Below are positions 33,101 to 61,661 of a stretch of 64,000 nt of DNA, in pieces. Where the stretch lies: NCBI GenBank assembly GCA_964017155.1, contig OZ024857.1:6339619-6403618 (forward strand), read 5' to 3'. The position numbers and the translations under genes were made by a program. The notes under the pieces were generated by a model, which worked only from the letters and a program-made list of their open reading frames with translations, searched no databases and had not been told where the DNA came from. Positions within the stretch are counted from its first letter, which is position 1. Each line of letters begins with the position of its first letter. The stretch comes from Oasisia sp. SBJ-2009 (taxonomy: Eukaryota; Annelida; Polychaeta; Sabellida; Siboglinidae).

Positions 33101-36100
33101 CAGTGCAAAATAGCACACATGTATGCCCATAGCTGCAGCCCAAAATACATCAGCAACATTTACAAACTGGTTAATGCATCAAACGAGAAAAATTACTAAA
33201 CAGTTCTAATTAAAACATCCCGATACAGTTGAAGCAGAAAATAGATCAAGTTGGCCTAGATGTAGAACTACGCACGCCGCATTACCTTAGAATCAATCCA
33301 GTCACAGATGTACATCTGTATTTGCCAACAACTTCTAACTCTAAGTATGATGTTGTATTCATGAGACTACAGGTAGAATCAGTTACATTCAAAGTGTGTA
33401 TTTCCACATAGTCACTGGCAACAGCAGCTAATTTATATTCATCTCAAACTAAATGTGCCAATTTCACAGATTATTCTGACAGAGATCCAGTTCTGAAGAA
33501 GAAAATAAATAATACTCACTTGTTATGGAAATTGTATATATCTTGGATGTTGCCGAAGATGATGTCATGTTTGCCCGAGATGCCCGCGGGCAGCTCCTTG
33601 TCTGGTGCCAGCATCTCTGCCATGTAGCACTGCAACAATCAGTAGAACATGGTACACGGACCAGCTGATTGTAAACTGTGAGTACACGGACCAGCTGATT
33701 GTAAACTGTGAGTACACGGACCAGCTGATTGTAAACTGTGAGTACGCAGACCAGCTGATTGTAAACTGTGAGTACACGGACCAGCTGATTGTAAACTGTG
33801 AGTACACGGACCAGCTGATTGTAAACTGCGAGTACACGGACCAGCCGATTGTAAACTGTGAGTACACGGACCAGCTGATTGTAAACTGCGAGTACACGGA
33901 CCAGCTGATTGTAAACTGTGAGTACGCGGACCAGCTGATTATAAACACTTGATGAAACTAACTGGTTTTAGTTTGCTTAAATTATATCATAATCATATAT
34001 GACAAGAATGAGTTGGAATTGGGGGGAGCTGTAGATTTAAATTCTGACATATACACTAAACACAGATCTATATCTGGTCCTCCATCTAACTATTGTATTA
34101 ACACTATCCACTGATAAACGTAGTTAGATATATAATACATGTATTGTTAGGCGTCATTATCCCCACATGGCCAGCCAATGCAGCCTGCTCTAGGACTGTG
34201 TCGACTCACATTGATGCAGGTCTCCAGGTCTTTGACGTAAGTGCGCTCCGTCTGCAGCAGTTCAGCCATGATGAACCTACAACGACCACTAGAGTCAGAC
34301 ACAGCATAAGAAACAATCAACATGCTCATTTTCCAACACTTGTCTTTGCGCTCCAGTTCAAGTCTTTTTTTAATACAGAACTCATTCAAATCCACCACTA
34401 AATGTAATCTGTTGAGAATAGTTAAACCTCTTCAAAATGCAAAAGGCTGCTGCTGTGTCAGAGGGGACACAATTTCCGTGACACAACATAAAAAAGGTAA
34501 AAATAAAAGAATGACAAATACTAAAAAGTGTTAAATAAAATATAAAACACACAGCAGATAATGGTCACTGGAAAACCATATGTAAAAATGCAACACAACG
34601 GGTTTAATTTCAGCAGAACTATTCCCCCAGACAGAAGGCGTGCACGTACTCCTTCCTGCGAGCAGACCTCCTCTTCTCCTCATTCAGTTCCTTCGCTGCC
34701 TGCTGAAGTTTCTCCTCCAAGTTTGGGTCGCTCTGTCGATCCTCCTGGGGCTGGGGGAAAGAAAGGACAACTTGGATGAGACACTCTGCACAACTTCCTC
34801 CATAGAACATGTGGCAAATACAACAGAGGTCCATCAGTGGCCCAGATGCCTAGCAAACTGTCCACCAAGCTAAACAAGTCAAACGTGGACAGCTTTTGTA
34901 CATTTGGTCATCTACCTTTGTGAAATTCTGACCTCAACATGTTTTATTTATTATACAAACCTAAGGAAAAGTTTTTAAACGACAATTTGATGACACCACA
35001 CACAATATTCTGACAGTGACATTTGCTGCAAACTATCAGGCCTTTGTAGCCCAGGACAAAGGCTAACAAGTGCCCAATAATGGACATTAACACAGAGACA
35101 ACCAGGAGACTGCGACTTACGTCGTGTGTGAGTCCAAGTGTTGTCTCAAGCTTCACGCGATGTTTCTCCATGCGGCAGGAGAAGTCCTTGTAGCGCCGGT
35201 CCACGGCTGCCACCCACGACTTGATGCTGGTTGCGTGCACATGGCCCTTCTCCACCAGGCCGTCAGCCACCTGAAGGAGGAGCTTCACCTTCTCTCGCGT
35301 CTCCTGTAACATTGTGTCAACATCTGTCACTAACTGTCACCTTCTCCACCAGCCACCTGAAGGAGGAGCTTCACCTTCTCTTGCGTCTCCTGTAACATTG
35401 TGTCAACAACTGTCACTAACTATCACCTTCTCTCCGTCTCCTGTAACATTGTGTCAACAAATGTCACTAACGGTCACCTTCTCTCGCCTCTCCTGTAACA
35501 TTGTGTCAACAAATGTCACTAACCGTCACCTTCTCTCACGTCTCCTGTAACATTGTGTTAACAACTGTCACTAACTGTCACCGTCTCTTGTGTCTACTGC
35601 AACATTGGATCAACAATTGTCACTAACTTCTCCCAGGTTTCCTGAAGTATTATGTCAACAACTGTCACTAACTGCCATCCCCTGTTTGTCTACTGAAACA
35701 CATCCACAGAGTTAGATCATTAATCTTTCCCCTATAGTTCTACTGGGGTGTTTTATTTATATCTATGGACACATCTGATTGTATCACCACAACTGCCTTG
35801 ACCCACCTGCCACATTGTTTATCTTTCACAACTATTCATGTTGCACTTACAACTGTCACCACAGTCAATACAAACAACATGTGTCATATAATCAACAAAT
35901 TACCTGCGTCACTAAAAACAATACACAACAACAAACCATCTATGTATGTGGCCCCCAGAAACAGCATTCCCTTAAGACCTCCAGAATAACCCTGAGATGA
36001 ACAAATCTCAACTACACGGGCCGATAATATGTTTTTATGACATTTTTATCGGTTACAAACAAAATATTTAATCAGTGATTTGGTTCACAGACTAGCTGCA

Positions 36101-39100
36101 ATGAGAAAAGGTCACAACACATTCAGAAACACTCCATACGCCAGGGTCATATGTTCATTCGGTTTTCAATTACAACATAAACATGACAGCTTTACCCCTT
36201 CAACAGTTACAAATCCTATCCATGGCATTGAAAAAGAGTTGCAATAAACAAAACAAAACCAAAACCAACACCACATCGGAAATTTTGATTGAATCCTTCA
36301 ACAACCAAATCTAACCCAACTCACTGTCGTCACAGACGTGATAACCAGAAAACAAAACAACATAACAACATTTTTCTGGTTATAAAACTGTGTCCTGCAA
36401 TATGTTACCTTAATGTAATACGTATCAGACTCATGCCACTTGTAGCCTGAGCTCCGAACTTTGACTTCATACACCACTGACATCTCACAACACACTGGTG
36501 GATCTAGTTCCTGTTTGCAAATTCCCACCAGTAAAACGCAACTACAGCCATAAATCTAACTCACACCAGGAAGTAGAGAGAACACGGACCTAAGAGATAA
36601 CATGTGCACATCGCAACTTAGTTTCATGTGATTATGGTGGTTATAGTTCCTCAACTAGGATTACCGAGTTTGTATTTCCTCAGAAACATTTCTTTTTATT
36701 CTGATTATTTATCTTTATACCTATCACTATCAGCCACCAACAGATATTCACGGGCACACAAACAGATTAAAAATTAATTTGTAAGAAGAGTCATAGTCAT
36801 TCTTTTGGCAACTTTCTTGGAGTGTCCTGTATCTTAGTTTCAACATATTTTTATGGAAGGGTAAACACATAACAAATTACCTGGATGGATTTAATTTTAG
36901 ATTGTGTTTAACATTGCTTATTTTCTGCAATGTAATCTACCGTAGTGTTTATCACTTGTTAAATAAAAAAAATCAGTATTTATATAAATTATATAAATAT
37001 TATACGATTATCTCCGATAATCAATTATCTGTTTGGCTAATAGTATTTGTCACATGGTTAAAAATCAGTATACATAAATAGGCTGACTGTATACAGACAT
37101 TTGTTATGGTGACACAAGACGGAGTACTTGAGGAAGCCCTGGATGGTATTACAGAATGGCTATTAATAGCTGACTAATTGTGGTCCAGGTGCCAAGTGTC
37201 TACAACTGGTGTCATGTGATGTCACATGACCAGCCCTTTGTGTTTTCTACAGGAACACATCTTTCCATTTATTGCAGACAAGGAACGTTATAGAAAAGGT
37301 TATGTCTCCTGGTATATGTAGTGGACATTTTATAATGCAATGATCACATATACAGATTGGCCGCATTAATAGTGTTACTTTTTTAAATCACTGCATTAAT
37401 AAATTAATGATAATTAGAAGATGAAATAGTTTTGAGCAAAACACCTTGAGCTATACCCAGGTACACATGTACTGTTCATGACGGAATGCAACCCTAAAAA
37501 TATGAGCTATGTGATCTTAGCACGATTCCTGTAGTAATAGCATTCATACATTTAGAACAGATTGCTGTAAATATGTCATTTTTATACCAGTACACTGTAT
37601 TGAGTATACATGTTCTATTTCAGGCATCTTTACAAAGAGTTGAAGTTGATTACAACCTTCACGTGGTTTCCGTTTCATTTACATGACACATACGTTAGGA
37701 AACACTGATCTAGATGTGGACTTACAGGTTTAAAGTCCATGAATTTAATTTGTTCATCCTGTTCCAGTGTGAGGTTTTTTATCATTTTTTTTTATGCTAT
37801 GATTATTCTTTTATTTATTTACGTTTTTTTATATTTATTAATATTTTAATTTTGTTTATCCTCTGTATATGTTCTTATCCCTGATGTAAATGTACTAAGA
37901 ATGTTACCAAGGAAATAATAGAAATGTGGAAGTAAACTTTTTGGACAATGATTTTTTGCACAGAAACAGCATTGTACACTATCTGGAAAGATATACGTTA
38001 AACATTAACAAATTAGAGCAGAATGTCATGATTCCGGCACTGGAAAAACAGACTGGTGATTCAAACAAGTTGTGATCTCTCCCTTGAACCAAAACAGAAC
38101 CTTTAGACCATGGCTTCTAAGAATAAAATGCGTCATTCTGTGGTTATATAGTACCTAAAACCTGGTTACCCCTAAACAATGACAACTACCTAGTACAGCT
38201 GTAGGTACTTCCTAGCAAAACCACCATCAGTTCGTGACATTTAATCACAGCTCATTTAACTATGATGCTCTCAACTAACCTCATTTTTTGCCTATGTAAA
38301 GTATGTTAAGTTAGTTTGATGTTTTTGTGTTATTTCTGTATTTTGTTCTCTTTTCTTGGTTTGCTTATATTCACAGTTGTTCTGTAATTGGTAAATATTC
38401 ACAAGTAGTTTAATTATATTCATCTCTTTTACAACAGCATCGGTCCTACTCAGTACATATCAGTTGTTTGAAATGAAGTAATAATTTTATATTATTATTA
38501 TTTCAAGTGCAGATAGTATAAAATTTGACGGAGTTTTAAAGTAACATTTGTAACAAATGGTAAACAACACCAAAAGATCTCAAACGCAGAAAAAATATTT
38601 GGTATAACATCTAAATTATAAACTAACAAGGCTACACATTTACGACCACATAATTGTTTTGCATTTCATAACCACATCTTGTCTCCTTGGCTAGTGGGAA
38701 ACATATCCTGAATTACACACCAAGTACTTTATCAATCTATTTAACTACACCTTACCTCATACGTGTAAACTTGAGGGTCAAACATTCCAGGAAAATGCTC
38801 ACCACTGTAACTAAGCAACCAGTGCTACCTCACAGACACTAATCTTTGTGTTCATACGCCATCTCTCATCCACTGCCAGGAAACAATGCAACTAAAATTA
38901 TGCAAAAACTCTCCAAATAAAAACACTTTCCAATGTGCTACATGATATCAAGCAGCCTCAGGTCGGAATGAACTGTGCTGCGCTAAAACGAAATCAGTGG
39001 GCGGGGTATACCAGATGGCACCACCGTACTAGAGGTCATCCCGTTAGTGAAGTTCATCAGGCCGAAAACAGCACCTGTTTTTGTCCTCGTAATCCTTTCA

Positions 39101-42100
39101 CATCGATCAATTACGACAGACACAGGCAGCACAATGCACCATCCAATTATGTCCGTTCACAACAAAGCCTGGCAAACTGCAAGTTGTAACTAAATGAAGT
39201 AAATCTTATAGATTCAATTACAATTTTGAAAATCAGTTGTTGTATAAATAGATTATGATATAATGATGTACTGGAGCTGGCAGCTTTGCTCAGACCATTT
39301 GAAGATCCATTCATCTGTGTTAGGAAATATAATTATGAAAATATTAATTAAAGTCAATCTGTCTACTTGTTAACTTACATAAAAAGATAGAAATTCCTTT
39401 CACGTCACTTACCCATTATGTTGTATCAATAATCTTGAGAAATAGCTCCATAAGCACAACTCAATAATACTTGTAATTAACATCAATATTGCTATATTTG
39501 AAACATCCAAAATTAAATGAGAAAACAAAACTCGATTTGAGGCACAGCTTCTCGATTTGAGGCACAGCTTCTGAAGCGGCTTTGTTACAAAGTCAAGTTT
39601 AACCCTCACTCATCTCATTGTGTGAAGTTAACCCTTGTCCTTCAGACAGTTACAGACAATGACTTGAGGCAGGGCAGACATCTCCATTGTGCTTTGTGTA
39701 AAAAGCTCTCATTATGCGAAATGAATTTAAATAGGAAATGGAACAGTGTGAACATGGCGCATAATGCTAAGCTCCGCCCACCTGGTGATTGACAGCCACT
39801 GACTCATGTACCCAGGGCTACCAGGATGGAATATGTTGCGACATTTTTGGCAGGGATGTTATCAGTCACATGAGAAACAGGATGTGAATCTTTTATGTTA
39901 GGCTACAGAAATAAATGTTGGAGATTAAGTAAGAATAACCGAGCTGATAGTTGCAAGGTGCAAAATTGTTCAGCGTAACAGATTAATATGATTAATGGTT
40001 TCAGCAACATTTTGAGGGAGGGGGTGGGTGTAGATTTATAAGAAAATCTCAAACAATTTCCATCCTGGATAGACTTGATGATTATGAGCCAATGTTTGAT
40101 GATGTTTGGCAGATGCATCAACCCGTCATACACTTTCTTGAATGAATCCATTTTAGAACATGCATTTTGAATTTTTTTACTCATACAATTTCTGCATCAC
40201 AAACAAGCCTTCTGTGCAAATCATACTATTTTGCTCATATAAAATAAATATATTTTAATAAAAAAAAAAAAAATTAACAACAACATTATGATCACAAACT
40301 CTCACACCAGACTGAACTGAGATGCCTCCAACTACAAAACCACTGCTATCTTTACAACAGACCCGTGTCAAGGTTAACCATGCAGACACAGAGAAAAACA
40401 TACCAAACCGAGTGATAAACAACTTGGAGCCGAGCCTCCTCATGAACTTGATTTAAGTTGAATAACCATGGAAAATTACCCATCAGTGTCCCAATTGTGA
40501 CCAACCACTGCCAATGAATATGGTAATGACATCGATTGAAAACACTGTGAGCTGACCTTTGCCCTGGCCTTGAACTCGTTGTGCTCCTTGAGGAGGGTCT
40601 GTGTCTCCTCCAGGTTCTTGCCGGCGTTGGTGTGAGTCGACAGGTACACCTCGCCGTTGTCATGGATCCACTCCAGCGCCTGGGGTCACAAGGTTAATAA
40701 TAATAATTTTTATTTTTATAAAGCTGGAAACATTTCCACTCAGAGGCGCATAAAATACATTGTAACACATACATATTTAATATATTCATAATCAGTTAAA
40801 CTAGCATGTAAAGACGAATTGTTAAATGATAATAAATTGATAATTAAATAAAGCTTCTAAAAGTCCTAGTTCATAAGCTAAACTTATCAGCAATAAATAT
40901 ATAAAATTAATAATAAATAAAATATATTAATCACTTAATAATAAAGTAAATAAAAAAATTGCAAAACTATAATTACTTAAAATAAATTCATTATAAAATA
41001 CCTTATAAGTAGTTTACAAATGCGGCCTTAAAATGATGTGTTTTCAAGTTGGACTTAAAAAGTTCAAGTGAGTCAGTCTATTAGTTGCAGACTATAACTA
41101 ACCATAACTAACACGGTCTAACAACAATTTACAAGGACACAAAAACAATTATGAAGATTTAACAAGATTCCCACTCCAAGCGATAGGCTTCATGTGGCAT
41201 TTGAAAAAGGAAGTCACAGCTTCAGAATGCATCTGTTTGCATATATGCATTTGCATGTAGTTCATTATTAAAGGGGCACTGTATGGGATTGAACCTTCCA
41301 CTCGTAACGGCAAAATTTGGCCAACCCGCGAGAGGCAGCATCGTCAGTACCTAAAAATATCTTGTCGACAAAAACTGCGACAACTGACAAGACAAGCGTG
41401 CCGCATGATAACTGTTGTTGCTATTTTTAACTCATGGCTTTTAAAAGTGATCCTGGACAGTGCAGTTGTGGAAACATCTGTAATAGATTGGAAAAGAGAG
41501 GCGTGTGTCCGTGTTTTATTCAAACGTCAACAAGATATTTTTAGGTACTGACGGTGCTGCCTCCTCGCGGGTCGGCCAAATTTTGCCGTTACGCGTGGAA
41601 CGTTCAATCCCATACAGTGCCCCTTTAACATCAATGTTTGTGTAAATGCAATTATGGGGCAATTCAGGGAAGCATTCAGCATGCTGAAATTAATGCATGA
41701 AGATTGGTAATGAAATCAGTTTGTACAACGTTTGATGACAACATAGAAATATATCATTGCAGGTTTACTGATCTTTATGAGATGTGGCTAAATGAAATCA
41801 TGCTTGATATAATTTACCTGTGAGATCCATATAAATATAATAAATAAAAACTAGTCCATCATAGTGGGTGACTGTGTAGCATACCACTCTCTACATTTGA
41901 TAGACTTTTCTGTAAAATAGTTTATAATAATATTAATCAATAAAAGAATGTGACATTGTGCACACAATTCCTCTCTACATGTGAGATGATGATTTAACGA
42001 ACATACCTGTTTTGCGCTACTCTCAAAGAACACGTATTGTTGGCACTGATCGAGTCTTCGCATCTTGGCTGTCCAGTACTCCAAGACAACATTCTCCTGC

Positions 42101-45100
42101 TTCAGAAGATGTTCCAGGGTCGCTGCAAACAACAGGAGTATAACTGAGTTTCACCCAACAAATATGTGCAGGATTATCTTTTTCTACAATGCTATATTTT
42201 CCAACAGTAACTGTGCATGCTCCATTATTAAAACTTCATGAAACAGAAATGTATGTTACTGACCTTTGACCTCCAATTCTGGGTCACGCACCAGATTCAT
42301 AACGAGGAAGTTGCGATGGAAGTATTTGAGGAAGGTCTCGGCAGTCCGTCGTGCCAATGTGCACGCCTACAACCATCACGATGATGATGAATACTCTCTC
42401 CGCCATTTACAAAAACATCTTCCCCTAAACTCCTCACAAATGATCACTGATCAACATGTGCTGGGGGTACTACAAAATGCATTTCCAATCATAAACACAA
42501 AGCATCAAGAGCTGACAATAACAGAGAAGGATCACTCGCACTATCTGTTTACTTGAAACTAAATTCCACAGAAAGCTGTAGTAATGTGCTACCACCTGGT
42601 GATCAACTGAGTAATCAAACAAACCACAGAATGCCAAGATGTCAACACAGTGTAACACATTCAAGGTATACTGCGGTGGGGTTGTCACAGTGATTTTGGT
42701 GACCTTGTGGCGAATTGGCCCCACCTTTTTAAAGTAAAAAATGTGTATTTGGTGGGAATGTTTGTACTCTTACATGTATTAGTATTATATGTAGAACGTT
42801 TATTGTGAGGTTTGGCTCAGAGAAACCAGTAGGTGACACTGGACACGGGCTCAGTGTCCGATAGTTGTATGGTTTTTAGAGTTACATGTTATTCCTACCA
42901 ATTTAATTAATAAATGTCATTCAATTGGCCATTTCAATTCTCAACTGCATTGGACTTGTCTTGGTTATTACATAAATAAATAACTGCATTGGACTTGTCT
43001 TGGTTATTACATAAATAAATAACTGCATTGGACTTGTCTTGGTTATTAAACAAACAAACAAACAAACAAACAAACAAACAAACAAACAAACAAACAAACA
43101 AACAAATAAATAAATAACTGAATGACCCCCCTGAGCCCGTCCACACTTAATATCCATGACCCCACACATGTATGACCCCTGACCCCATATTATGCGTGAC
43201 CCCTGACCTTGAGGAATGCCTCCTTCTTCTCCTGGTGCTTCAGGATGAGTTGTGTCATGGCCGCGGCCTTGTCGCTGGAGGAGGCGACTGTCTCCGTGCT
43301 GCACCAGTCCTCCTCCCGCCTGTACTCCCGCTCCAGGCTCTCCAGCACCGAACACACCTACACAACACACCCAGGGTCAGACGTGTTGACTCGGAACACA
43401 TCTAGGTGATAATGTGTTGGCTCAGAACACATCTAGGTGAACACGTGTTGACTCGGAACACATTCAGGTGATGATGTGTTGGCTGAGAACACATCTAGGT
43501 GAACACGTGTTGACTCGGAACACATCCAGGTGATGATGTGTTGGCTCTGAACACATCTAGGTGAACACGTATTGGCAAAAAACATATCCATGTGAACACA
43601 TACTGACACAGAACACATCTTGGCTCATAACACATCAAGGTGTTACCTCAGAACACATCCAGGTGAACACACATTGCTCAGAACACATTCAGATGAACAC
43701 ATATTGGCTCAGGACACATCAAGGTGAGCACACGCTGGCTCAAAACACATCCACGTGAACATGCGTTGACTCATAAAACATCCAGGTGATAATGTGTTGT
43801 CTGAAAACACATATAGGTGAATACGTATTGGCACAGAATACATCCAGGTGAACATATCTTGGCTCAGAACACATCAAGGTAGAACGTGTTACCTCAGAAC
43901 ACATCCAGGCAAACACACATTGCTCAGAACCATTCAGGTGAACACGTATTGGCTCAGGACACATCAAGGTGAGCACACATTGGCTCACAACACATCCACA
44001 TGAACATGTGTTGGCTCAGAACACATCCTGGTAAACATGTGTTAGCTCAGAACACATCCAAGTGAACATGTGTTAACCTAGAACATGTCCAGGTGAAAAC
44101 ACACTGGCTCAGAACATACTTCCAGGCAGAGAACATGTATGTTTAAACAAACCCATGTACAAACTCACTAAGACATTCATAACACACAAACACATCCAGA
44201 CAAACAAAACACATCTGCACGCAAACACACCTTCATACAGTTCCAACACATCTACGGAATCACACACTTGGCCAGACATAACAAACAGGGGAAGACAGAG
44301 ACACATTCGTTTCTACCTGTTCGGCTGTCTTGAACCAGTTGCGTGCCGATACGACCAACTTGATTCGATCCGTCGCATGGCACATCAACTGCTGCCACCT
44401 AGTGGTGACATTCTCTCCGATCGAGCGAATGATCTCGCTGCTGTAGTGATGGTTGTTGATCATGTGCTGTGCCTTCTCCGTCAGCTGTAGTGCCGCCGAC
44501 TGAAAAACGAGACATGACTTGTGTACAGCAATGACTTGTATAGACATGACTTGTGTATATGCCTGAAACAATGTGGCATGTTACAGATCATAGATACGGC
44601 TCGAGTCAGTTCAAGATTGAGACAAATCAAAGACATGATTAAAGTCATTTCGGTGTGATCATGGAACAGTTATACGACTTTTGTCAAGTCAAGACAGAGA
44701 AATGACTCATGCAATCAGGTTAACACTCTCAACGTATGTCACGTATGTCACGTATATCATGTATGTCACGTATGTCACGTATGTCACGTATGTCACGTAT
44801 GTCACGTATGTCATGTATGTCATGTGTGTTATGTGTGTCGTGTCTGTCACATACCTCGATGGCCAGTTGGAACTGTTCGACCTCCTTCCTCAGTTGCTCT
44901 GCCTCGTGTACATTGTTGGGACAGACGAGGGTCGCAGCTAACATGGCCTCGCCATTCTTGATCCACGCCAGGACCTGCACGGGAAAACGTAGTCAACACA
45001 AGTCGACACAAACACATCTAACACAGCCACAACACATCTAACATGGACACAACACATTTAACATGGCACTAACACATTTAACAGAGTAGAAATGTTGTAA

Positions 45101-48100: not shown

Positions 48101-51100
48101 AGAAAATTAGAAAATGGAACAGAAATAGAAGAAACCAGACACACAAGAGGTAGAAGGAGTAGAACCAGTGTTTGTTGTACCTCGAGTGCCTCCCTCTCAA
48201 ACAGCCTCAGCTGTAGACACAGGTCCAGTTTGAGGCGGCGGGCGGCCCACAGGTCCTCCAACTGCTCCCGGCCGTCCACCAGCGTCTGCAGCACATCTGT
48301 GGACAAACAGTGGTCAGTGAAAACTGGACACAACACTGGTCAGTGAAAACTGGACACAACACTGGGCAGTGAAAACTGGACACAACACTGGTCAGTGAAA
48401 ACTGGACACAACACTGGGCAGTGAAAACTGGACACAACACTGGTCAGTGAAAACTGGACACAACACTGGTCAGTGAAAACTGGACATCTGTGGACACAAC
48501 ACTGGTCAGTGAAAACTGGACATCTGTGGACACGACAATGGTCAGTGAAAACTGGACATATGTGGACACAACACTGATCAGTGAAAACTGGACATCTGTG
48601 GACACGACACTGGTCAGTCAAAACTGGACATCTGTGGACATGACACTGGTCAGTCAAAACTGGACATATGTGGATATGACACTGGTCAGTCAAAACTGGA
48701 CATCTGTGGACACAACACTGGTCAATCAAAACTGGACATCTGTGGACACGACATTGGTCAGTCAAAACTGGACATCTGTGGACACAACACTGGTCAGTCA
48801 AAACTGGACATCTGTGGACACAACACTGGTCAGTCAAAACTGGACATATATGGACACAACACTGGTCAGTCAAAACTGGACATATGTGGACACAACACTG
48901 GTCAGTTAAAACTGGACATCTGTGGACACAACACTGGTCAGTCAAAACTAGACATCTGTGGATACAACATTGGTCAGTCAAAACTGGACATAACACTGGT
49001 TAGTTAAAACTGGACATCTGTAAACACAACACTAATCGGTCAAAACTGGATAGTCAAAACTATGCTTCCTACCACATGCTATTGTAACAGAAACTCAAAC
49101 AAATTATTCCATTACAGTTTATGCTAAATCTCTAACTATTATTCCATTAAATCTGAGCTAACGAACTATTAGAAAAGTTTGTTAAGTGTTTTTACAGAAC
49201 AAGGAAAATACTACTAGTCTTATAAATAATTCTGCCTAAAATATGTATCCTGCTGTGTAGGATACATGGGCTGTGTAAATATGACACATTTATTATTTTA
49301 TGCAACCAATACGTGGCATTTGTTCTATGTGAGATCATACAATCTACGAACATAACATAATTGATCACAATGATTCAAATCTGGTTTTCTTGCCCGAAAG
49401 TTTAATGCTGTAACTACTGTGTGGTACATCGCCATACTTAAGAAAGCAGATGGCCAAAGAAGGTTGCAATTAAAACTAAATACCAGCACAGAATACAGTG
49501 CTAACTATCTAACGGCTTACCTACCACCGCTGCCTGAGGCATATGGACTATTGATGCACCACGTGCAATGGGTGAATTTAATCGCCTACTACAAGGTGTG
49601 TGACTTGATTAAAATAGATTATTGGGATGATTATCACCTGAGTAATTCCTTTAGACGTTAGTAATTATGAAGATCTAAATAGAACTAGTCAATAGGCAGC
49701 AGTGTTATTGACCCTGGTCAGGAACTGACCTCTACAATGTTGTGTCTTATAGTTGTCATATAGGGTTGAAGGGACTGCTTCAAAATGTGACTGAGAATAT
49801 AATGTTATGCTGTGCTTTGATTGAGTCACTATTAGGGATGGGACGATTAATCGCGGTTCACGGTATTCGCGGTTTTAAGGCTCACGGTTCGGTGCACCGT
49901 CGTCAGTTTGTGTACCACGGTTTTTATCGATTTTGATAAATGGCACATCATCATCACCTAATCGGTGTTTCCGTACACGTGAATGACGTGACGTATATGC
50001 TGGGAGGATATAATTATAAGGCTGCCAGCCCAGAAACATTTCCTACAGGTAACAATGCTGTCCCAAAGTTGAGTGATCGCAATTCTCCCGTCAGCGTACG
50101 CCTCCCGTCGCAGGGTTGAGAAACCACTACCGAGTGAACATGGCCACCATCGATGGTTACGCATAACTCTGTGATTACTGTAATATCCATATTGTTTTTG
50201 ATAAAAGTTCAGAACTTAGGCTAAGTTTTTAGGATAAAACTGGAATCCAGATTTAGCGACACCGCGATAAAATATCGACTTAACGCCACGGTAATCTACG
50301 ACTACGGCCTGCTTCACGTAAGTTCGGCGTAACAGTCGCTTGCAATGTCAGACTTTCGTTTAGCAAGATTTTGATTTGTGAATTTTATTCGTCACAGCAA
50401 TTTAAATGATTAAATTTTATGACCTAGCGTATGTATATGTAATATGTGTAATTAGAGAGGAAGTTTCGCGGCTGTAGGAGGTCGTTTTCATGATTAGATC
50501 AGAAAGTAAAAGATCGTTTTGCGGTGCTGGAAAGAATAACAAAATGGCGACCGCGGTGCGATTACCCAGACGCCGTGAGGTGCCAGCACTTTTTAGCCCT
50601 TCAGACCGAATTTGAAATAAATTAACTGAGAATAGTATTTATATCAATTATTAAAAAAAAAGATTAAAAATGAGGATACTCTTTATCAGATATTTTTTTT
50701 TTTAACCGATTCAAAATTAAACTTATACTGAAACGTGTCACACATAAAATAAACAGAATAAATAATTTTGTTGTTGTTAATAATTTTGTTCCATTTATTA
50801 TTTTCTACTTTTTATTTTGTGTATTTTACTACTTAGTGGTTGTAAGCACCCCCTAGTGTTGAATGTTGCAAACCCCTCACGAGAGACCACCCCTCTTTTA
50901 AGACCGCTCCACTCTGATTTGGGGGGCGTCTTAAATGAGGGGTTCCACTGTACTGCACTTAAAATTGTTCATTAAAAATGTTGTGTGATAGGTGGCGTGG
51001 TTGTGGAAAATATCGTGAATATATCGAACCGTGGGTCAGATATCGAAAATCGAACCGAAAATATAAAATATATATCGTCCCATCCCTAGTCACTATAAAA

Positions 51101-56989: not shown

Positions 56990-57050
<61 letters not shown>

Positions 57051-57844
57051 TGTAATAGATAAAATAACAATAAGTTTGCATGGTGGTAACCATGGTAACC
57101 ACACCATTCTTGGAATTTCTAACACAGGTAGTTTGTGAATAGTCCCAAAGGAAATGGAAGTAAAATATTTCCATTTTTTATTTACATGTACAAATATGAT
57201 ACTAATTAGTGCAAAGAACCGGTTTGTCAAACACCAGGTAGCAGTTTCGATTCCGATTACATTGAAAAAAACATAAACAAATGCTATATAAATCACATTT
57301 TTAAATACCATAAAAATCACATTTTTACCATAGTTTTTATAATATGTCAGTCATACACATCACCCACAGAGCTTTATGCAGTCACACATGTTTTGGTGGA
57401 TACATGGATGTTAACTGTTAAGCTAGTTTACAAACTTTCATATGTGCCTGCTGACCTGAAATAGGCTACAAACACACATATGACACCATTTACGCTTACT
57501 TTCAAGGCATAACTAACAATATCTATGGTTTTGGAAGACCTTTTTTTGCTCCTTTTTTTACCCTTCCACCCATGTTTCTACCCGTCCATATTCGTTTTTA
57601 CCTGTCCTAATGATGGGTGGACGGGTCTCTACATAAAGCTATGATCACCCACCTCATTGACATGTGTGTAGAAGGCGATGACGAGTTCGAGGAGGTTGCG
57701 TCGTCGCTCCACGCGAGACAAGAAGACGTGCATGCGCTGCTCCAGGGAGCGGGCCTCGTTGTAGATCTCCTGGGGGTCGCACTCCCCCGACTCCGCCAAC
57801 TCCTCCGCCGCCTGCAGCAACTTGTCCGCGTTGGTGATCGTGTT
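26162..57844 (-). CDS. TRIO: Trio/Kalirin-family RhoGEF, 24 internal exons (partial gene)
   Basis: Overall gene model. Trio is a cytoplasmic, membrane-associated guanine-nucleotide exchange factor. In the known family DH1-PH1 activates Rac and RhoG, DH2-PH2 activates RhoA, and the spectrin repeats bind partners during axon guidance and cell migration. Here 24 exons with GT/AG borders join in phase into 1067 codons without a stop. Visible hallmarks are spectrin-repeat motifs ([42 protein letters not shown]), the DH1 signature [15 protein letters not shown] and the PH1 segment [13 protein letters not shown]. Introns between repeats fall repeatedly at the same place, just after the ..AKQ or ..AEQ end of helix A's first turn, in phase 0. 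The 5' exons (Sec14 domain and first repeats) and the 3' exons (SH3, DH2-PH2) are not in the window. Trio and Kalirin are vertebrate paralogues; an invertebrate normally has one, called Trio or UNC-73. Confidence 0.96.
26421..28100 (-). other. Trio intron between exons 23 and 24
   Basis: 1.68 kb, AT-rich, with (attt)n-like runs near 26520-26560. No repeat family member or exon recognised. Confidence 0.8.
28101..28240 (-). CDS. TRIO: Trio exon 23 of window (PH1 C-terminal helix and linker)
   Basis: 140 nt, 46 codons plus two bases. Acceptor is ..gatgctgtag and donor is AGCAG|gtcagt. It encodes [20 protein letters not shown], then [20 protein letters not shown] and FSQRSS. The vertebrate match is SSIENKQDWIKHIREVIQER. 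The Trp is the invariant PH-domain C-helix tryptophan. Confidence 0.97.
28241..29553 (-). other. Trio introns around exon 22
   Basis: Introns at 28241-28855 and 28961-29553 flank exon 22. The second holds an A/T-only tract of taaataa motifs at about 29280-29420. Nothing else is visible. Confidence 0.8.
28856..28960 (-). CDS. TRIO: Trio exon 22 of window (PH1)
   Basis: 105 nt, 35 codons, phase 0 to 0. Acceptor is ..gtcgtcacag and donor is CTCAGG|gtgagc. It encodes [20 protein letters not shown] then [15 protein letters not shown]. The vertebrate match is SELGVTEHVEGDPCKFALWVGR..NKIVLKA. Confidence 0.97.
29554..29736 (-). CDS. TRIO: Trio exon 21 of window (PH1)
   Basis: 183 nt, 61 codons, phase 0 to 0. 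Acceptor is ..catgttgcag and donor is CTCATG|gtcagt. It encodes [40 protein letters not shown] and ends [14 protein letters not shown]. The vertebrate match is [41 protein letters not shown]. It forms the first strands of the pleckstrin-homology domain that packs against DH1. Confidence 0.98.
29866..29892. repeat. (AT)n microsatellite
   Basis: Short alternating AT run in the intron between exons 20 and 21. Confidence 0.9.
30068..30131. repeat. (AT)n microsatellite
   Basis: About 60 bp of alternating AT interrupted once by tacata. Same intron as the preceding run. Confidence 0.95.
30646..30723 (-). CDS. TRIO: Trio exon 20 of window (end of DH1)
   Basis: 78 nt, 26 codons, phase 0 to 0. Acceptor is ..atggctacag and donor is TTCGAT|gtgagt. 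It encodes [20 protein letters not shown] then MLDGFD. The vertebrate match is [26 protein letters not shown]. It is the last DH1 helix leading into PH1. Confidence 0.97.
30805..31012. repeat. Dispersed repeat E, copy 2
   Basis: Second copy of the repeat at 24196-24408, in the intron between exons 19 and 20 and about 80 bp from the acceptor of exon 20. Confidence 0.85.
31207..31560 (+). mobile_element. tRNA-derived SINE, family A copy 2
   Basis: Same element as 2783-3183, inserted antisense to Trio in the intron after exon 19. The tRNA-like head is partly eroded (tctaagggttagcacatcca, cacctgacatgg). Its 3' end lies about 20 bp from the exon 19 donor. Confidence 0.75.
31583..31717 (-). CDS. 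TRIO: Trio exon 19 of window (DH1 conserved region 3)
   Basis: 135 nt, 45 codons, phase 0 to 0. Acceptor is ..catgtgcag and donor is ATAAAG|gtcagt. It encodes [40 protein letters not shown] and KGEIK. The run [15 protein letters not shown] is the most conserved helix of DH domains and carries the GTPase-contacting residues. A SINE-like element ends about 20 bp beyond the donor. Confidence 0.98.
32276..32365 (-). CDS. TRIO: Trio exon 18 of window (DH1)
   Basis: 90 nt, 30 codons, phase 0 to 0. Acceptor is ..ttgttttag and donor is TTTGAG|gtcagt. It encodes [20 protein letters not shown] then [10 protein letters not shown]. The vertebrate match is [28 protein letters not shown]. Confidence 0.96.
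32957..33026 (-). CDS. TRIO: Trio exon 17 of window (DH1)
   Basis: 70 nt: one base completes Asn, then 23 codons. Acceptor is ..tctattgtag and donor is ACGTGG|gtaagt. It encodes [20 protein letters not shown] then VTW. The vertebrate match is [23 protein letters not shown], almost identical. Confidence 0.96.
33520..33629 (-). CDS. TRIO: Trio exon 16 of window (DH1)
   Basis: 110 nt, 36 codons plus two bases. Acceptor is ..gattgttgcag and donor is AACAA|gtgagt. It encodes [20 protein letters not shown] then [16 protein letters not shown]. The vertebrate match is ..[25 protein letters not shown]. A 30-bp minisatellite starts about 20 bp upstream of the acceptor. Confidence 0.95.
33652..33945. 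repeat. 30-bp minisatellite (about 10 units) beside exon 16 acceptor
   Basis: The unit is gagtacacggaccagctgat plus tgtaaactgt, exactly 30 bp, with single-base variants (cgcgga, cgcaga, agccgatt). It begins about 20 bp upstream of the exon 16 acceptor. Both strands are open because the period is divisible by three. Confidence 0.95.
34210..34276 (-). CDS. TRIO: Trio exon 15 of window (start of DH1)
   Basis: 67 nt: one base completes Glu, then 22 codons. Acceptor is ..gtcgttgtag and donor is ATCAAT|gtgagt. It encodes [20 protein letters not shown] then IN. This is conserved region 1 of the Dbl-homology domain, including the TERTYVKDL helix whose Glu contacts GTPase switch 1 in known DH structures. 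The vertebrate match is FIMAELIQTEKAYVRDLREC. Confidence 0.95.
34277..34649 (-). other. Trio intron between exons 14 and 15
   Basis: 373 bp with A-rich stretches and no recognisable element. Confidence 0.8.
34650..34750 (-). CDS. TRIO: Trio exon 14 of window (linker before DH1)
   Basis: 101 nt, 33 codons plus two bases. Acceptor is ..ttcccccag. The donor is AAGGA|gtacgt, chosen because only this joins in frame to the next exon as RRKE|FIMAEL; using the GTGCAC four bases later would create a stop. It encodes [20 protein letters not shown] and then [14 protein letters not shown]. The vertebrate match is AAHELNEEKRKSARRKE. A second AG six bases downstream (CAGCCCCAG) would remove the first two residues without a frameshift. 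Confidence 0.94.
34751..35120 (-). other. Trio intron between exons 13 and 14
   Basis: 370 bp, nothing recognised. Confidence 0.8.
35121..35303 (-). CDS. TRIO: Trio exon 13 of window (last spectrin repeat, helices B-C)
   Basis: 183 nt, 61 codons, phase 0 to 0. Acceptor is ..aatgttacag and donor is CACGAC|gtaagt. It encodes [20 protein letters not shown], then [20 protein letters not shown], and ends [10 protein letters not shown]. The vertebrate match is QTKERVKLLIQLADGFCEKGHAHA..KRYRDFSLRMEKYR. The first part of the exon together with its acceptor has been copied tandemly into the intron at 35338-35390, with an 8-bp deletion. Confidence 0.97.
35304..35692. repeat. Minisatellite made from the exon 13 splice acceptor
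   Basis: Tandem, decaying copies of the exon 13 edge. The first copy (35338-35390) repeats about 45 bp of exon plus the acceptor with an 8-bp deletion. Further copies every 50-53 bp carry only cttctctcgcgtctcctgta and attgtgtcaacaac-type sequence. In transcript sense each has a gttacag|gag acceptor, intact in copies near 35387, 35438, 35490 and 35542 and degenerate beyond. Confidence 0.9.
35693..40556 (-). other. Main part of the 5.25-kb Trio intron between exons 12 and 13
   Basis: AT-rich sequence with no clear exon. A 20-bp direct duplication (ctcgatttgaggcacagctt) lies at 39530-39570, and an A run at 40260-40273. No mobile element recognised. Confidence 0.7.
40557..40679 (-). CDS. TRIO: Trio exon 12 of window (last spectrin repeat, helix A)
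   Basis: 123 nt, 41 codons, phase 0 to 0. Acceptor is ..tgaccccag and donor is GCAAAG|gtcagc. It encodes [20 protein letters not shown], then [17 protein letters not shown]. The vertebrate match is [37 protein letters not shown] 5.25-kb intron follows. Confidence 0.97.
41272..41624. mobile_element. TTAA-flanked MITE (piggyBac-like), 353 bp
   Basis: The ends are long terminal inverted repeats of about 97 bp, both starting aggggcactgtatgggattg and extending through cgtaacggcaaaatttggcc to cagtacctaaaaatatcttg with a handful of mismatches. Direct TTAA copies flank it at 41268-41271 and 41625-41628, the target site of piggyBac-type transposases. The roughly 160-bp middle encodes nothing, so it is non-autonomous. 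It lies in the intron between exons 11 and 12. Confidence 0.9.
42007..42122 (-). CDS. TRIO: Trio exon 11 of window (spectrin repeat)
   Basis: 116 nt: two bases complete an Ala codon, then 38 codons. Acceptor is ..gtttgcag and donor is AAACAG|gtatgt. It encodes [20 protein letters not shown] and then [18 protein letters not shown]. The vertebrate match is ..[30 protein letters not shown]. It includes the RRLDQCQQY signature typical of Trio/Kalirin spectrin repeats. Confidence 0.97.
42264..42366 (-). CDS. TRIO: Trio exon 10 of window (spectrin repeat)
   Basis: 103 nt, 34 codons plus one base. Acceptor is ..tggttgtag and donor is GTCAAAG|gtcagt. It encodes [20 protein letters not shown] and ends RDPELEVK. 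The vertebrate match is ACTLARRNADVFLKYLHRNS. Only 141 bp of intron separate it from the next exon, the shortest intron in the window. Confidence 0.96.
42942..43050. repeat. 39-bp tandem triplication
   Basis: Three copies of aactgcattggacttgtctt followed by ggttattacataaataaat, the last running into the AAAC array. Confidence 0.95.
43049..43114. repeat. (AAAC)n microsatellite
   Basis: About 14 aaac units followed by three aaat units. Confidence 0.95.
43208..43357 (-). CDS. TRIO: Trio exon 9 of window (spectrin repeat)
   Basis: 150 nt, 50 codons, phase 0 to 0. Acceptor is ..gttgtgtag and donor is CTCAAG|gtcagg. It encodes [20 protein letters not shown] and ends [12 protein letters not shown]. 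The vertebrate match is [30 protein letters not shown], an unusually well conserved stretch. A minisatellite of roughly 31-bp units lies just upstream of the acceptor and partly resembles the exon edge. Confidence 0.97.
43358..44112. repeat. Minisatellite upstream of exon 9, partly resembling its acceptor
   Basis: More than 20 units of about 30-32 bp built on gaacacatctaggtgaacac plus gtgttgactcg. In transcript sense a unit contains cacctag|atgtgttc, comparable with the true edge gtgtag|gtgtgttcgg. Units are variable and several are truncated. Confidence 0.85.
44317..44499 (-). CDS. TRIO: Trio exon 8 of window (spectrin repeat)
   Basis: 183 nt, 61 codons, phase 0 to 0. Acceptor is ..cgtttttcag and donor is GAACAG|gtagaa. 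It encodes [20 protein letters not shown], then [18 protein letters not shown], and ends NWFKTAEQ. The vertebrate match is SALQVQQKAEAMLQANHYD..HWQQLMLKMEDRLKLV..FYKTSEQ. Confidence 0.96.
44733..44852. repeat. 9-bp tandem repeat at the exon 7 donor
   Basis: About 12 units of cgtatgtca with tgt variants, ending two bases before the donor dinucleotide of exon 7. Confidence 0.95.
44855..44974 (-). CDS. TRIO: Trio exon 7 of window (spectrin repeat, helix A)
   Basis: 120 nt, 40 codons, phase 0 to 0. Acceptor is ..cccgtgcag and donor is ATCGAG|gtatgt. It encodes [20 protein letters not shown] and then [18 protein letters not shown]. The vertebrate counterpart is VLGWIRNGESMLNAGL..EAEQLQREHEQFQHAIE. 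A 9-bp tandem repeat starts immediately after the donor. It stays open in the same frame, so retained intron would add Ile-Arg-Asp repeats before a stop near 44729. Confidence 0.96.
45265..45466 (-). mobile_element. tRNA-derived SINE, family C
   Basis: Read on minus the head is ggcgccgtgggggagcagtt, then agagtgctggactgttgat and ggtttgagtcctggacccc. These resemble A and B boxes of a tRNA gene (gagcagttagagtg; ggtttgagtcc). The rest is a body of repeated ccatagaatatggacacc-like segments. Sense to Trio, starting about 28 bp after the exon 6 donor. Single copy in this window. Confidence 0.55.
45494..45676 (-). CDS. TRIO: Trio exon 6 of window (spectrin repeat)
   Basis: 183 nt, 61 codons, phase 0 to 0. 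Acceptor is ..gttggtag and donor is AAACAG|gtgggt. It encodes [20 protein letters not shown], then [14 protein letters not shown], and ends [13 protein letters not shown]. This matches vertebrate VQDLLEFLHEKQQELD..CVQLRHLQAEVKQ. A tRNA-derived SINE begins about 28 bp beyond the donor. Confidence 0.96.
46737..46898 (-). CDS. TRIO: Trio exon 5 of window (spectrin repeat)
   Basis: 162 nt, 54 codons, phase 0 to 0. Acceptor is ..gtggtcgtag and donor is GCACAG|gtgaga. It encodes [20 protein letters not shown] and ends [14 protein letters not shown]. The vertebrate counterpart is ISDLESWNDELSQQM..TFDVIHQGQDLLQ. It forms helices A and B of a spectrin repeat. Confidence 0.95.
46940..47216 (-). mobile_element. 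tRNA-derived SINE, family B full-length copy
   Basis: Read on minus, gtggctagagcattgcattt is A-box-like and cctgggttcgaatccatg holds a perfect B box (ggttcgaatcc). The body (ggagcaacgt, agccaggtactcattcct, gaagcattcagcc, caatcaaacactg) recurs at 11.7-11.9 kb and partly at 24.9 kb. It lies sense to Trio, about 40 bp upstream of the exon 5 acceptor. Confidence 0.75.
47720..48150. repeat. 430-bp polypurine tract
   Basis: The plus strand is almost entirely A and G (gaagaagaaaatcaagaaga and similar, with a short tandem of agatgagaaagaggagaggg). Trio pre-mRNA therefore carries a long CU tract straight after exon 4. The Lys/Glu/Arg frame on plus and the Phe/Leu/Ser frame on minus are composition artefacts. 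Confidence 0.95.
48181..48296 (-). CDS. TRIO: Trio exon 4 of window (spectrin repeat)
   Basis: 116 nt: two bases complete an Asp codon, then 38 codons. Acceptor is ..gtccacag|AT and donor is CTCGAG|gtacaa. It encodes [20 protein letters not shown] followed by [18 protein letters not shown]. This matches vertebrate VLQQLDEAQSQMEELFQERK..LQLRIFERDAID. It is helix C of one repeat running into helix A of the next. Its acceptor is duplicated in the adjoining 36-bp minisatellite. Confidence 0.95.
48297..49064. repeat. Minisatellite made from the exon 4 splice acceptor
   Basis: Starts at the acceptor. First about seven 26-bp units (aacactggtcagtgaaaactggacac) to 48480, then about 15 units of 36 bp that add catctgtgga. 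In transcript sense the 36-bp unit contains ttttcactgacca then gtgtccacag|atg, nearly the same as the authentic ttttcactgaccac..gtccacag|atg. Every long unit thus has a branch-point-like ctgac and an acceptor. Confidence 0.93.
49833..51088. mobile_element. Non-autonomous hAT-type DNA transposon, 1256 bp
   Basis: Terminal inverted repeats tagggatgggacgat are perfect over 15 bp at both ends. A perfect 8-bp target duplication gtcactat flanks it at 49825-49832 and 51089-51096, the length typical of hAT elements. The subterminal part carries repeated tatcg, cggttcg and cgcggt motifs. No transposase frame remains. It sits in the intron between exons 3 and 4. Confidence 0.93.
51975..52036 (-). CDS. 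TRIO: Trio exon 3 of window (short spectrin-linker exon)
   Basis: 62 nt. It completes the Arg codon and reads [20 protein letters not shown], ending one base into the next codon. Acceptor is ..ttgcttgcag and donor is GAAG|gtgaga. Vertebrate Trio has the equivalent SAISSNKTPHNSSINHIE loop here. The exon is isolated by more than 3.6 kb of intron on one side and 4.7 kb on the other. It is too short to recognise alone; phase continuity and the HIE ending support it. Confidence 0.9.
52037..53320 (-). other. Trio intron between exons 2 and 3, proximal part
   Basis: AT-rich sequence with no exon or element recognised before the 17-bp array. Confidence 0.75.
53321..54030. repeat. 17-bp minisatellite (about 42 units)
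   Basis: The unit is actggggctggtaggac with variants agggc and tgtggc; later units have ggcagg. Three unit types are interspersed in partly repeated order. Minus-strand frames rich in Pro/Ser/Val are artefacts (17 is coprime with three, giving a 51-bp coding period). Confidence 0.96.
54031..56200 (-). other. Trio intron between exons 2 and 3, distal part
   Basis: No coding exon, tandem array or clear element recognised in this 2.2 kb. Confidence 0.7.
56205..56302. repeat. 20-bp tandem repeat (5 units)
   Basis: Unit ggtactgtaaatggtcccca with one- or two-base variants. Confidence 0.9.
56351..56493. repeat. (CCCT)n polypyrimidine array
   Basis: About 35 ccct units with ccccct variants near the right end. 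Strong strand asymmetry and a C-rich strand give potential for triplex or i-motif structure. Confidence 0.97.
56731..56900 (-). CDS. TRIO: Trio exon 2 of window (spectrin repeat)
   Basis: 170 nt, phase 0 in, ending two bases into an Arg codon. Acceptor is ..atgtttcag and donor is ATAAG|gtatgc. It encodes [20 protein letters not shown] then [20 protein letters not shown] and ends GESILDQIR. This aligns with vertebrate Trio [31 protein letters not shown] is helix A of a new spectrin repeat. Confidence 0.95.
56992..57049. repeat. (AT)n microsatellite
   Basis: About 56 bp of uninterrupted alternating AT in the intron between exons 1 and 2. Confidence 0.97.
57378..57645. repeat. Dispersed repeat D, copy 2
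   Basis: Second copy of the repeat at 13641-13915. Its right end lies about 7 bp from the exon 1 donor, so the first intronic bases (in transcript sense) after the splice site come from or abut this repeat. Confidence 0.8.
57653..57844 (-). CDS. TRIO: Trio exon 1 of window (spectrin repeat)
   Basis: 192 nt, 64 codons, phase 0 to 0. Acceptor is ..gttgacag and donor is GAG|gtgggt. It begins [20 protein letters not shown], continues with the conserved [12 protein letters not shown] and ends FYTHVNE, which matches the vertebrate Trio segment NTYTNADKLLEAAEQLA..THVKE. It forms the last two helices of one spectrin repeat and the start of the next. The acceptor is the first unit of a 19-bp minisatellite. 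A dispersed repeat ends about 8 bp beyond the donor. Confidence 0.95.
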
Positions 57845-58218
57845 CTGTCAACACAAACGTGTTCCGTCAACACAAACGTGTTCCGTCAACATAAACGTGT
57901 TCTGTCAACATAAACGTGTTCTGTCAACACAAACGTGTTCTGTCAACACAAACGTGTTCTGTCAACACAAACGTGTTCTGTCAACACAAACGTGTTCTGT
58001 CAACACAAACGTGTTCTGTCAACACAAACGTGTTCCATCAACATAAACGTGTTCTGTCAACATAAACGTGTTCTGTCAACACAAACGTGTTCTGTCAACA
58101 CAAACGTGTTCTGTCAACACAAACGTGTTCTGTCAACACAAACGTGTTCTGTCAACATAAACGTGTTCTGTCAACATAAACATGTTCTGTCAACATAAAC
58201 GTGTTCTGTCAACATAAA
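57840..58218. repeat. Minisatellite made from the exon 1 splice acceptor
   Basis: About 20 units of cgtgttctgtcaacacaaa (19 bp). The first unit is the authentic exon edge: read on minus, gtttgtgttgacag|aacacg. All but three units keep ctgtcaac, so they carry a gttgacag acceptor followed by exon-like aacacg. Variants ccgtcaac (two) and ccatcaac (one) lose the AG. Confidence 0.95.
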
Positions 58219-58235
58219 GGTGGCAGACATCAGTT

Positions 58236-61660: not shown

Positions 61661-61661
61661 T

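What the first reader, a model, noticed from the sequence alone, without database searches (positions are those of the whole stretch)
33630..58218. Recurrent minisatellites seeded from Trio 3' splice sites
At least three introns (upstream of exons 1, 4 and 13 of this window), probably a fourth (exon 9), hold minisatellites that start exactly at the acceptor and whose units contain a copy of that acceptor. A fifth (exon 16) starts within about 20 bp. Tandem arrays are common in introns, but repeated origin from the exon's own splice acceptor in one gene is unusual. It implies that these AG junctions are hot spots for slippage or duplication, and it creates 4 to about 17 decoy acceptors per intron. 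I know of no named description of this pattern; whether it is new was not checked.
Basis: partly seen in the sequence, partly recalled or inferred. Interest (0 to 1): 0.8.

Follow-up and report, generated by a model that had tools for sequence, protein, structure and literature searches.

The report
Minisatellites that copy exon edges
In an animal genome very rich in short tandem repeats, some repeats contain copies of the place where an exon begins or ends; this was known from amphioxus as "mirages", and here it appears in another branch of animals, at both ends of exons and in other genes too.

Summary
The anatomy is real. The window holds 24 exons of Trio on the minus strand. Three introns (before exons 1, 4, 13) end in minisatellites whose units carry copies of the authentic acceptor plus 6, 4 and 19 exon bases; the intron before exon 13 even holds a 50-base copy of that exon. 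Exon 9 is inconclusive. Exon 16's array starts 22 bp off without an acceptor copy.

The pattern has a name: tandem duplications of exon/intron boundaries are "mirages", described in amphioxus. It is not acceptor-specific: in Trio outside the window, arrays abut 5 acceptors and 4 donors, one donor being copied about 46 times. And boundaries are not hot spots: in 77 myosin exons taken blind from the same 764-Mb genome, arrays span 5 of 75 acceptors and 5 of 76 donors, while minisatellite coverage is lowest next to the exon (about 9% at 1-10 bp, 12-25% farther out).

Best reading: frequent neutral tandem duplication in introns, blocked by coding sequence, tolerated across exon edges because the exon-proximal copy stays intact. 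The Trio protein places the animal in Lophotrochozoa, not amphioxus. So: a known kind in a new clade, with a rate estimate.

The parts
57653..57844 (-). Trio exon E1 (spectrin repeat); authentic acceptor at 57844/57845
   Evidence: 980-aa spliced frame, homologue match
57839..58222 (-). 19-bp minisatellite, 20 boundary-like units (the last is the authentic one) of the type TTGACAG|AACACG (6 exon bases); 16 of 19 decoys keep AG, the two nearest the exon do not
   Evidence: TRF; copy test; units
48181..48296 (-). Trio exon E4; acceptor at 48296/48297
48300..49050 (-). 36/26-bp minisatellite; 36-bp units carry TGTCCACAG|ATGT (4 exon bases), 11 of 15 with intact AG; the 26-bp units next to the exon lack that segment
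35121..35303 (-). Trio exon E13; acceptor at 35303/35304
35264..35690 (-). 52-bp array plus an 86-bp unit spanning the acceptor; units carry ATGTTACAG plus about 19 exon bases (GAGACGCGAGAGAAGGTGA type); degenerate units beyond 35628
   Evidence: TRF 35264-35628; boundary copies at 35389, 35440, 35492, 35544, 35596, 35641
35340..35389 (-). 50-base copy of exon 13 (exon bases 1-37 and 46-58, one mismatch) lying in the intron before exon 13
   Evidence: local alignment; shared word GAGAAGG at exon bases 10-16 and 52-58
43208..43357 (-). Trio exon E9
43381..44116 (-). 31-bp-type minisatellite 23 bp upstream of the E9 acceptor; copy of the acceptor inconclusive (p 0.056)
43157..43208 (-). 24-bp duplication starting at the E9 donor, with a second copy of G|GTCAGGGGTCA (p 0.008)
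33520..33629 (-). Trio exon E16
33652..33946 (-). 30-bp x 9.8 minisatellite 22 bp upstream of the E16 acceptor; no acceptor copy
44732..44850 (-). 9/27-bp array beginning 4 bp after the E7 donor; no clear donor copy (p 0.042)
44510..44559 (-). 17-bp x 3 weak array 10 bp upstream of the E8 acceptor; 16 intronic bases copied, not the AG
45005..45083 (-). 20/40-bp weak array 30 bp upstream of the E7 acceptor; no acceptor copy

Best explanation
These are mirages: minisatellites whose repeated unit includes an exon-intron junction. SHOWN: introns of Trio in this animal are about 14% minisatellite; some arrays run up to or across exon edges at both acceptors and donors; units contain exon bases plus the splice site; the copies lie on the intron side and the Trio frame stays open. 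INFERRED: a tandem duplication (by slippage, or by unequal exchange at short shared words) that happens to include a junction is neutral, because one intact exon edge remains and the extra copies become intron; later rounds of duplication lengthen the array; duplications reaching far into coding sequence are removed by selection. [quoted passage not shown] nearly all other acceptor copies in Trio would shift the frame or bring in stops.
For: Boundary copies at E1, E4, E13. Exon 13 copy in the intron, joined at GAGAAGG, a word present twice in the exon. Outside the window: 8 exon bases copied at acceptor win +93450, donor copies at +90770 (25 bp x 9.9) and +83901 (39 bp x 46). Blind myosin exons: arrays span 5 of 75 acceptors and 5 of 76 donors and reach 7-43 bases into the exon. 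Coverage lowest next to the edge; exon interior 0.8% against 6-7% in the first or last 10 exon bases. Near edges pile up at exons (10 of 20 upstream and 12 of 25 downstream arrays within 25 bp or across) without higher coverage there, as blocked growth predicts. Only 3 of 185 AGs in the stretches upstream of E1, E4, E9, E13, E16 are in frame and open. Same anatomy and both boundary types in amphioxus globin genes, where RT-PCR suggests regular splicing (PMC3087553 passages). Nearest sites across the exon preferred in long introns (PMC9225289 abstract).
Against: No RNA: which copy is spliced is inferred from frame and homology. Trio leans to acceptors: 10 of 60 against 5 of 60 introns, 6 of 61 against 2 of 61 boundaries spanned, and in the window the acceptor side has 0.27-0.29 coverage at 26-400 bp against 0.08-0.13 on the donor side. 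In Trio outside the window acceptor-side coverage is flat, not falling (0.130 at 1-10 bp, 0.11-0.17 farther out). The two E1 decoys nearest the exon lost their AG (chance 0.0175, post hoc), which would suggest selection against near decoys rather than plain neutrality. A fresher-near-the-exon gradient is seen at E13 (rho 0.85, n 7) but not at E1 or E4. The blind sample is one gene family; a kinesin replicate did not complete.
Confidence: 0.8

Rival explanations
1. Splice acceptors are mutational hot spots: the AG junction or its pyrimidine tract promotes duplication, so arrays start there more than elsewhere.
For: In the window 3 of 22 arrays lie within 5 bp and 7 of 22 within 30 bp of an acceptor, far above free placement; whole Trio 10 of 60 acceptors against 5 of 60 donors.
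Against: Blind exons: coverage upstream of acceptors 0.088 at 1-10 bp, 0.133 at 11-25, 0.127 at 26-50, 0.125 at 51-100, 0.168 at 101-150; donors alike near the edge (0.087, 0.146); intron-interior positions copied at least as often. Edge pile-up is what blocked growth predicts. Trio outside the window: 5 acceptors, 4 donors.
Confidence: 0.1
2. The arrays are kept because they regulate splicing: copy number sets exon inclusion or intron retention, as with the human ABCA7 VNTR.
For: Units carry plausible acceptors (E1 16 of 16 scored AGs with PWM >= 5); ABCA7 VNTR length correlates with exon 19 skipping and its unit begins with a splice donor (PMC5954066 abstract and passages).
Against: Nearly all acceptor copies in Trio would break the frame; copies occur at about 7% of sites of both types in myosin genes, more like a neutral by-product. 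No RNA or population data here.
Confidence: 0.08
3. Remnants of recent intron gain by tandem genomic duplication: the intron itself was made from repeat units holding AG and GT.
For: The intron at win 83900..81654 is 88% array and has similar units at donor and acceptor; in 9 of 14 Trio introns with an edge array the non-array part is only 81-738 bases; the amphioxus authors propose this model (PMC3087553 passages).
Against: In 5 of 14 such introns 1.6-21.5 kb lies outside arrays; most arrays that I inspected carry one boundary type only. Intron age in relatives was not tested.
Confidence: 0.06
4. Assembly artefact: repeat copies added or collapsed at exon edges.
For: There are runs of N near Trio (gaps or withheld stretches), and one 233-base exact exon repeat abuts a 200-N run.
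Against: Units inside arrays are diverged, boundary arrays occur in many separate places, and the Trio frame is intact. Exact copy numbers may still be wrong.
Confidence: 0.03

Closest known systems
'Mirages' of amphioxus (Adh3, globins BflGb6 and BflGb9, TnC, PGBD5)
   Same: [quoted passage not shown] PMC3902484 passages). The naming paper (Canestro 2002) was seen only as an entry of a reference list; it is not held.
   Different: Host is a lophotrochozoan by its Trio protein, not a cephalochordate; a blind rate is given (about 7% of acceptors and of donors in 77 exons); about 46 units at one donor. No RNA, haplotype or somatic data here.
Intron gain by tandem genomic duplication (AGGT)
   Same: Tandem duplication involving splice signals (PMC3443670 passages).
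   Different: There an exonic AGGT segment is duplicated and makes a new intron; here an existing boundary is multiplied and the intron only lengthens (inferred).
Human intronic VNTRs that affect splicing (ABCA7)
   Same: Minisatellite by an exon with a splice signal in each unit (PMC5954066 abstract and passages).
   Different: An effect of length on splicing is reported there and is untested here.
Dual-specific splice sites in tandem repeats (UBC)
   Same: Splice signals repeated in a tandem array (PMC10809524 abstract and passages).
   Different: There coding monomers are spliced in and out; here the copies are intronic.

Membership tests
Mirage (boundary-spanning minisatellite) | Tandem array of similar units | tested here: met
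   TRF scores 670, 899 and 390 at E1, E4, E13
Mirage (boundary-spanning minisatellite) | Unit includes intron end plus exon bases of the adjoining exon | tested here: met
   6, 4 and 19 exon bases at E1, E4, E13; E4 fails the ungapped test
Mirage (boundary-spanning minisatellite) | Unit includes the boundary at E9 and E16 | tested here: inconclusive
   E9 p 0.056; E16 p 0.08 with an 8-base match only: these two acceptor arrays are not filed as mirages
Mirage (boundary-spanning minisatellite) | Occurs at both 5' and 3' ends of exons | tested here: met
   Donors at win +90770 and +83901; five of 76 myosin donors
Mirage (boundary-spanning minisatellite) | Regular mRNA still made from the authentic edge | not testable with these tools
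   No RNA; only an intact 980-aa frame and gap-free junctions
Mirage (boundary-spanning minisatellite) | Length polymorphism and somatic instability (reported for Adh3) | not testable with these tools
   One assembly only
Tandem-duplication intron gain | Intron absent at this position in relatives | not tested
   No relatives' gene structures at hand
Splicing-regulatory VNTR | Copy number changes isoform ratio | not testable with these tools
   No population or RNA data
Duplication hot spot at acceptors | More array coverage or local copies at acceptors than inside introns and at donors | tested here: not met
   77 blind exons; edge counts in the window alone do exceed free placement

The most novel reading that the evidence does not exclude
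In this genome mirages are a standing feature: about one exon in eight (10 of 77 blind exons) has an acceptor or donor multiplied in tandem, and the spliceosome must pick the one exon-proximal copy among up to dozens of near-identical sites. Exon definition would be the tolerance mechanism, and repeat-rich animals outside chordates would carry a natural, genome-wide test of exon definition against first-AG scanning.
Probability: 0.4. Interest if true: 0.65.

Novelty: new member of a known kind. Interest (0 to 1): 0.5.

Why it matters
It moves mirages from a handful of amphioxus genes to a second major animal branch and gives a blind rate, which suggests that other minisatellite-rich genomes may have them. 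It warns gene-annotation tools about decoy splice sites, and it offers natural arrays of near-identical splice sites on which exon definition can be tested. It also shows why piled-up array edges near exons should not be read as mutation hot spots without a coverage control.

Tried and rejected
Acceptor hot spot: rejected by the blind coverage profile. Amphioxus as host, suggested by the literature: rejected by the Trio tree. E9 and E16 acceptors as boundary-seeded: not supported. Acceptor-like units as a mark of boundary arrays: rejected, because the intronic array 21539-23830 also scores high (59 of 59 AGs with PWM >= 5) with no exon recognised at its edge. Fresh-near-exon polarity as general: only E13. 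Intron length as a test of exon definition: uninformative (3 of 60 Trio introns are under 300 bp, none of them with an edge array). Rfam (gathering scores) and tRNA scans of the window: nothing. PMC3862624 (passages): only simple repeats in cone-snail introns. A kinesin replicate (PF00225) was asked for seven times and never answered. One search was a script error, corrected, where the least usable flank was also lowered from 290 to 282 bases; 70 of 75 acceptors and 71 of 76 donors had enough flank for that test.
Full report
WHAT IS THERE. The window (64,000 bases, no N, 40% G+C) is G000:C4:6339619-6403618 of a 764-Mb assembly in 33 contigs. On the minus strand it carries 24 exons of Trio (Rho guanine exchange factor). 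E1-E23 join, with GT-AG at every junction, into one 980-aa frame without a stop; E24 adds an acceptor at 26420. The protein matches Trio and Kalirin structures and homologues. The best named homologue over the full length is the brachiopod Lingula anatina (69-70% identical). In a 27-sequence tree the window pairs with an unnamed sequence and lies outside the group of arthropods plus deuterostomes, which includes Branchiostoma and has local support 1.000. So the host is most likely a lophotrochozoan and not amphioxus; the phylum is not settled.

THE ARRAYS IN THE WINDOW. TRF finds 22 minisatellites of period 7 or more from 26.1 kb upwards. At E1, E4 and E13 the units contain the exon's own boundary: a gapped comparison of -30..+12 with the array beats all 500 shuffles (scores 67, 58 and 74 against shuffle maxima of 35, 36 and 39) and all other acceptors. 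An ungapped test is stricter and passes E1 and E13 but not E4 (17 of 26, p 0.095), because the authentic E4 site lacks one base that the units have. E9 (p 0.056), E16 (p 0.08) and E7 (p 0.54) show no convincing copy; E8 has 16 intronic bases copied but not its AG. On the donor side, E9 has a 24-bp duplication with the donor in it (p 0.008) and E7 an abutting array without a clear donor copy (p 0.042). None of these p values is corrected for the number of sites looked at. In the ungapped test of all 24 acceptors and 23 donors, E1, E13 and the E9 donor were the only ones that no shuffle reached.

HOW THE COPIES WERE MADE. At E13 the 52-bp unit carries 19 exon bases, and one 86-bp unit carries 50 (exon bases 1-37 and 46-58, one mismatch), lying in the intron at 35340-35389. 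The exon holds the word GAGAAGG at bases 10-16 and 52-58, and the 86-bp unit has the length expected from a misaligned exchange between these two places minus the 8-base deletion (52 + 42 - 8; the route is inference). Units farther from E13 are more degenerate (rho 0.85, n 7), but E1 and E4 show no such trend.

DECOYS. E1 keeps AG in 16 of 19 upstream units; the two units next to the exon lack it (chance 0.0175, found post hoc). E4 keeps it in 11 of 15 and E13 has six boundary-like copies. Of 185 AGs in the stretches upstream of E1, E4, E9, E13 and E16, only 3 are in frame and open (two at E4, one at E13). By a small matrix built from the window's 24 acceptors, many decoys score about as well as or better than the authentic sites at E1 and E4, so sequence strength alone does not seem to pick the site.

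OUT OF SAMPLE, SAME GENE. I fetched 100 kb on each side and found the rest of Trio with seven homologues. Splice sites were called automatically; within the window the method agreed with all 21 known acceptors it called and with 19 of 20 checkable donors, but its matrix was trained on these same sites, it missed the small exon E3 and it made no call for E10-E11. One of the 37 exons called outside the window is probably an assembly duplicate. In the 36 introns outside the window, arrays of score 100 or more abut or span 5 acceptors and 4 donors. Several are plain boundary copies, read by eye: TTTGCAG|GAGTGTTT upstream of the exon at +93450, GCCAG|GTGTTTG upstream of +84002, GGCCG|GTCAGTGG after +90770, and CATGAAACAG|GTCAGTGTTT after +83901 in an array of 46 units, with 38 exact AAACAGGTCAGTG words in that intron. 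At +88135 the copied boundary has lost its AG, at +81653 only the intron side is repeated, and +102456 and -44431 show no boundary copy. Over the whole gene, 14 of 60 introns are affected: 10 acceptors and 5 donors. By the stricter rule that an array covers -3..+3, it is 2 of 24 acceptors and 0 of 24 donors in the window (E4 is missed because TRF starts 4 bp upstream) and 4 of 37 and 2 of 37 outside.

BLIND TEST IN OTHER GENES. A Myosin_head search of the genome gave 78 exon hits; 77 were fetched with 300 bp on each side, chosen without regard to repeats. Acceptors were called in 75 and donors in 76, by the same automatic method. Arrays cover the boundary (-3..+3) at 5 of 75 acceptors and 5 of 76 donors and reach 7-43 bases into the exon: examples are L057, with ACCCCAG|GGTGGTAAGAT repeated, and L064, whose 53-bp unit carries about 40 exon bases and the donor. 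Near edges of arrays pile up at exons (10 of 20 upstream and 12 of 25 downstream arrays within 25 bp or across). But minisatellite coverage upstream of acceptors is 0.088 at 1-10 bp, 0.133 at 11-25, 0.127 at 26-50, 0.125 at 51-100, 0.168 at 101-150, 0.150 at 151-200 and 0.143 at 201-250; downstream of donors it is 0.087, 0.146, 0.191, 0.184, 0.206, 0.247 and 0.240. The first and last 10 exon bases have 0.068 and 0.064, the exon interior 0.008. Intron positions 110 bp away are copied nearby in 10 of 70 and 14 of 71 cases, against 5 of 70 acceptors and 6 of 71 donors (score >= 34; Fisher p 0.27 and 0.089, so not significantly different). So in this sample boundaries are not hot spots, and acceptors are not preferred. 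Flanks of 300 bp cut long arrays, so far-bin coverage is if anything too low. Some sampled genes look like tandem paralogues by their places (C13:31.2-31.8 Mb), so the exons are not fully independent.

WHY THE WINDOW LOOKED SPECIAL. Free placement of arrays in introns predicts far fewer edges near acceptors than seen (3 of 22 within 5 bp against 0.10 expected; 7 of 22 within 30 bp against 0.49; donors 2 of 22 within 5 bp against 0.09). But arrays that grow until they meet coding sequence pile their edges at exons without any hot spot. The window's acceptor side is rich in arrays (coverage 0.27-0.29 at 26-400 bp against 0.08-0.13 on the donor side), yet even there it falls to 0.11 in the last 10 bp. 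In the rest of Trio the two sides are alike near the exon and reversed farther out (at 101-400 bp, acceptor side 0.11-0.16, donor side 0.26-0.28); there the acceptor side is flat rather than falling.

MECHANISM. The simplest account is neutral: introns here are about 14% minisatellite (Trio); a duplication that includes an exon edge leaves one intact edge, and the rest becomes intron. Which copy is used is not shown. [quoted passage not shown]

COMPARISON WITH WHAT IS KNOWN. Such structures are named mirages in amphioxus: globin genes with 3' and 5' boundaries duplicated, Adh3 with somatic instability, regular splicing suggested by RT-PCR, and a proposed role in intron gain (PMC3087553, abstract and passages); also PGBD5 and TnC (PMC3902484, passages). 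My ten full-text searches showed no report of mirages outside amphioxus in the rows listed; the listings were capped at 10-25 rows and the library holds only open-licence papers, so this is no proof of absence. Related but different: duplication-made introns (PMC3443670, passages), the ABCA7 VNTR (PMC5954066, abstract and passages), UBC dual-specific sites (PMC10809524, abstract and passages) and C. elegans minisatellites near alternative exons (PMC4039745, passages).

VERDICT. This is a new member of a known kind, in a new clade and with a blind rate. On checking, I raised the odds of the intron-gain rival from 0.04 to 0.06, because in 9 of 14 affected Trio introns little DNA lies outside arrays.

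Noticed in passing
window 21539-23830: 38 bp x 60 array (97% matches); on the minus strand all 59 scored AGs look like strong acceptors (pyrimidine tract plus CTAG), yet no exon was recognised at its edges.
   Followed up: partly
G000:C4, window coordinates +83900 to +81654 (outside the window): A Trio intron that is 88% tandem array: 39 bp x 46 with copies of the upstream donor (38 exact AAACAGGTCAGTG words), many units also holding an acceptor-like TGCCAG, and similar 38-bp units at the acceptor end.
   Followed up: partly
G000:C4, window coordinates -41455..-41688 and -43700..-43933 (outside the window): The same Trio exon occurs twice, 233 bases 100% identical, the second copy abutting a 200-N run; probably an assembly artefact.
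   Followed up: yes
window 41240-41656: Long imperfect inverted repeat (93-nt arms 84% complementary plus 38-nt arms 95%), like a foldback or MITE-type element in a Trio intron.
   Followed up: no
window 50000-50200: Part of a dispersed repeat: 39 other scored matches in the genome, 81-98% identical over all or part of the 201 bases, 40 of 200 candidates having been scored.
   Followed up: no
window 57839-57901: The two E1 repeat units next to the exon have lost their AG (GACAG to GACGG); the nearest AG lies 57 bases upstream, third longest of the 24 acceptors.
   Followed up: partly
window 63289-64000 and 61661-62115: Two more large minisatellites (25 bp x 28, 23 bp x 20) in the intron upstream of E1, not at any exon found; a 5-kb run of N follows at 64001-69000.
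   Followed up: no
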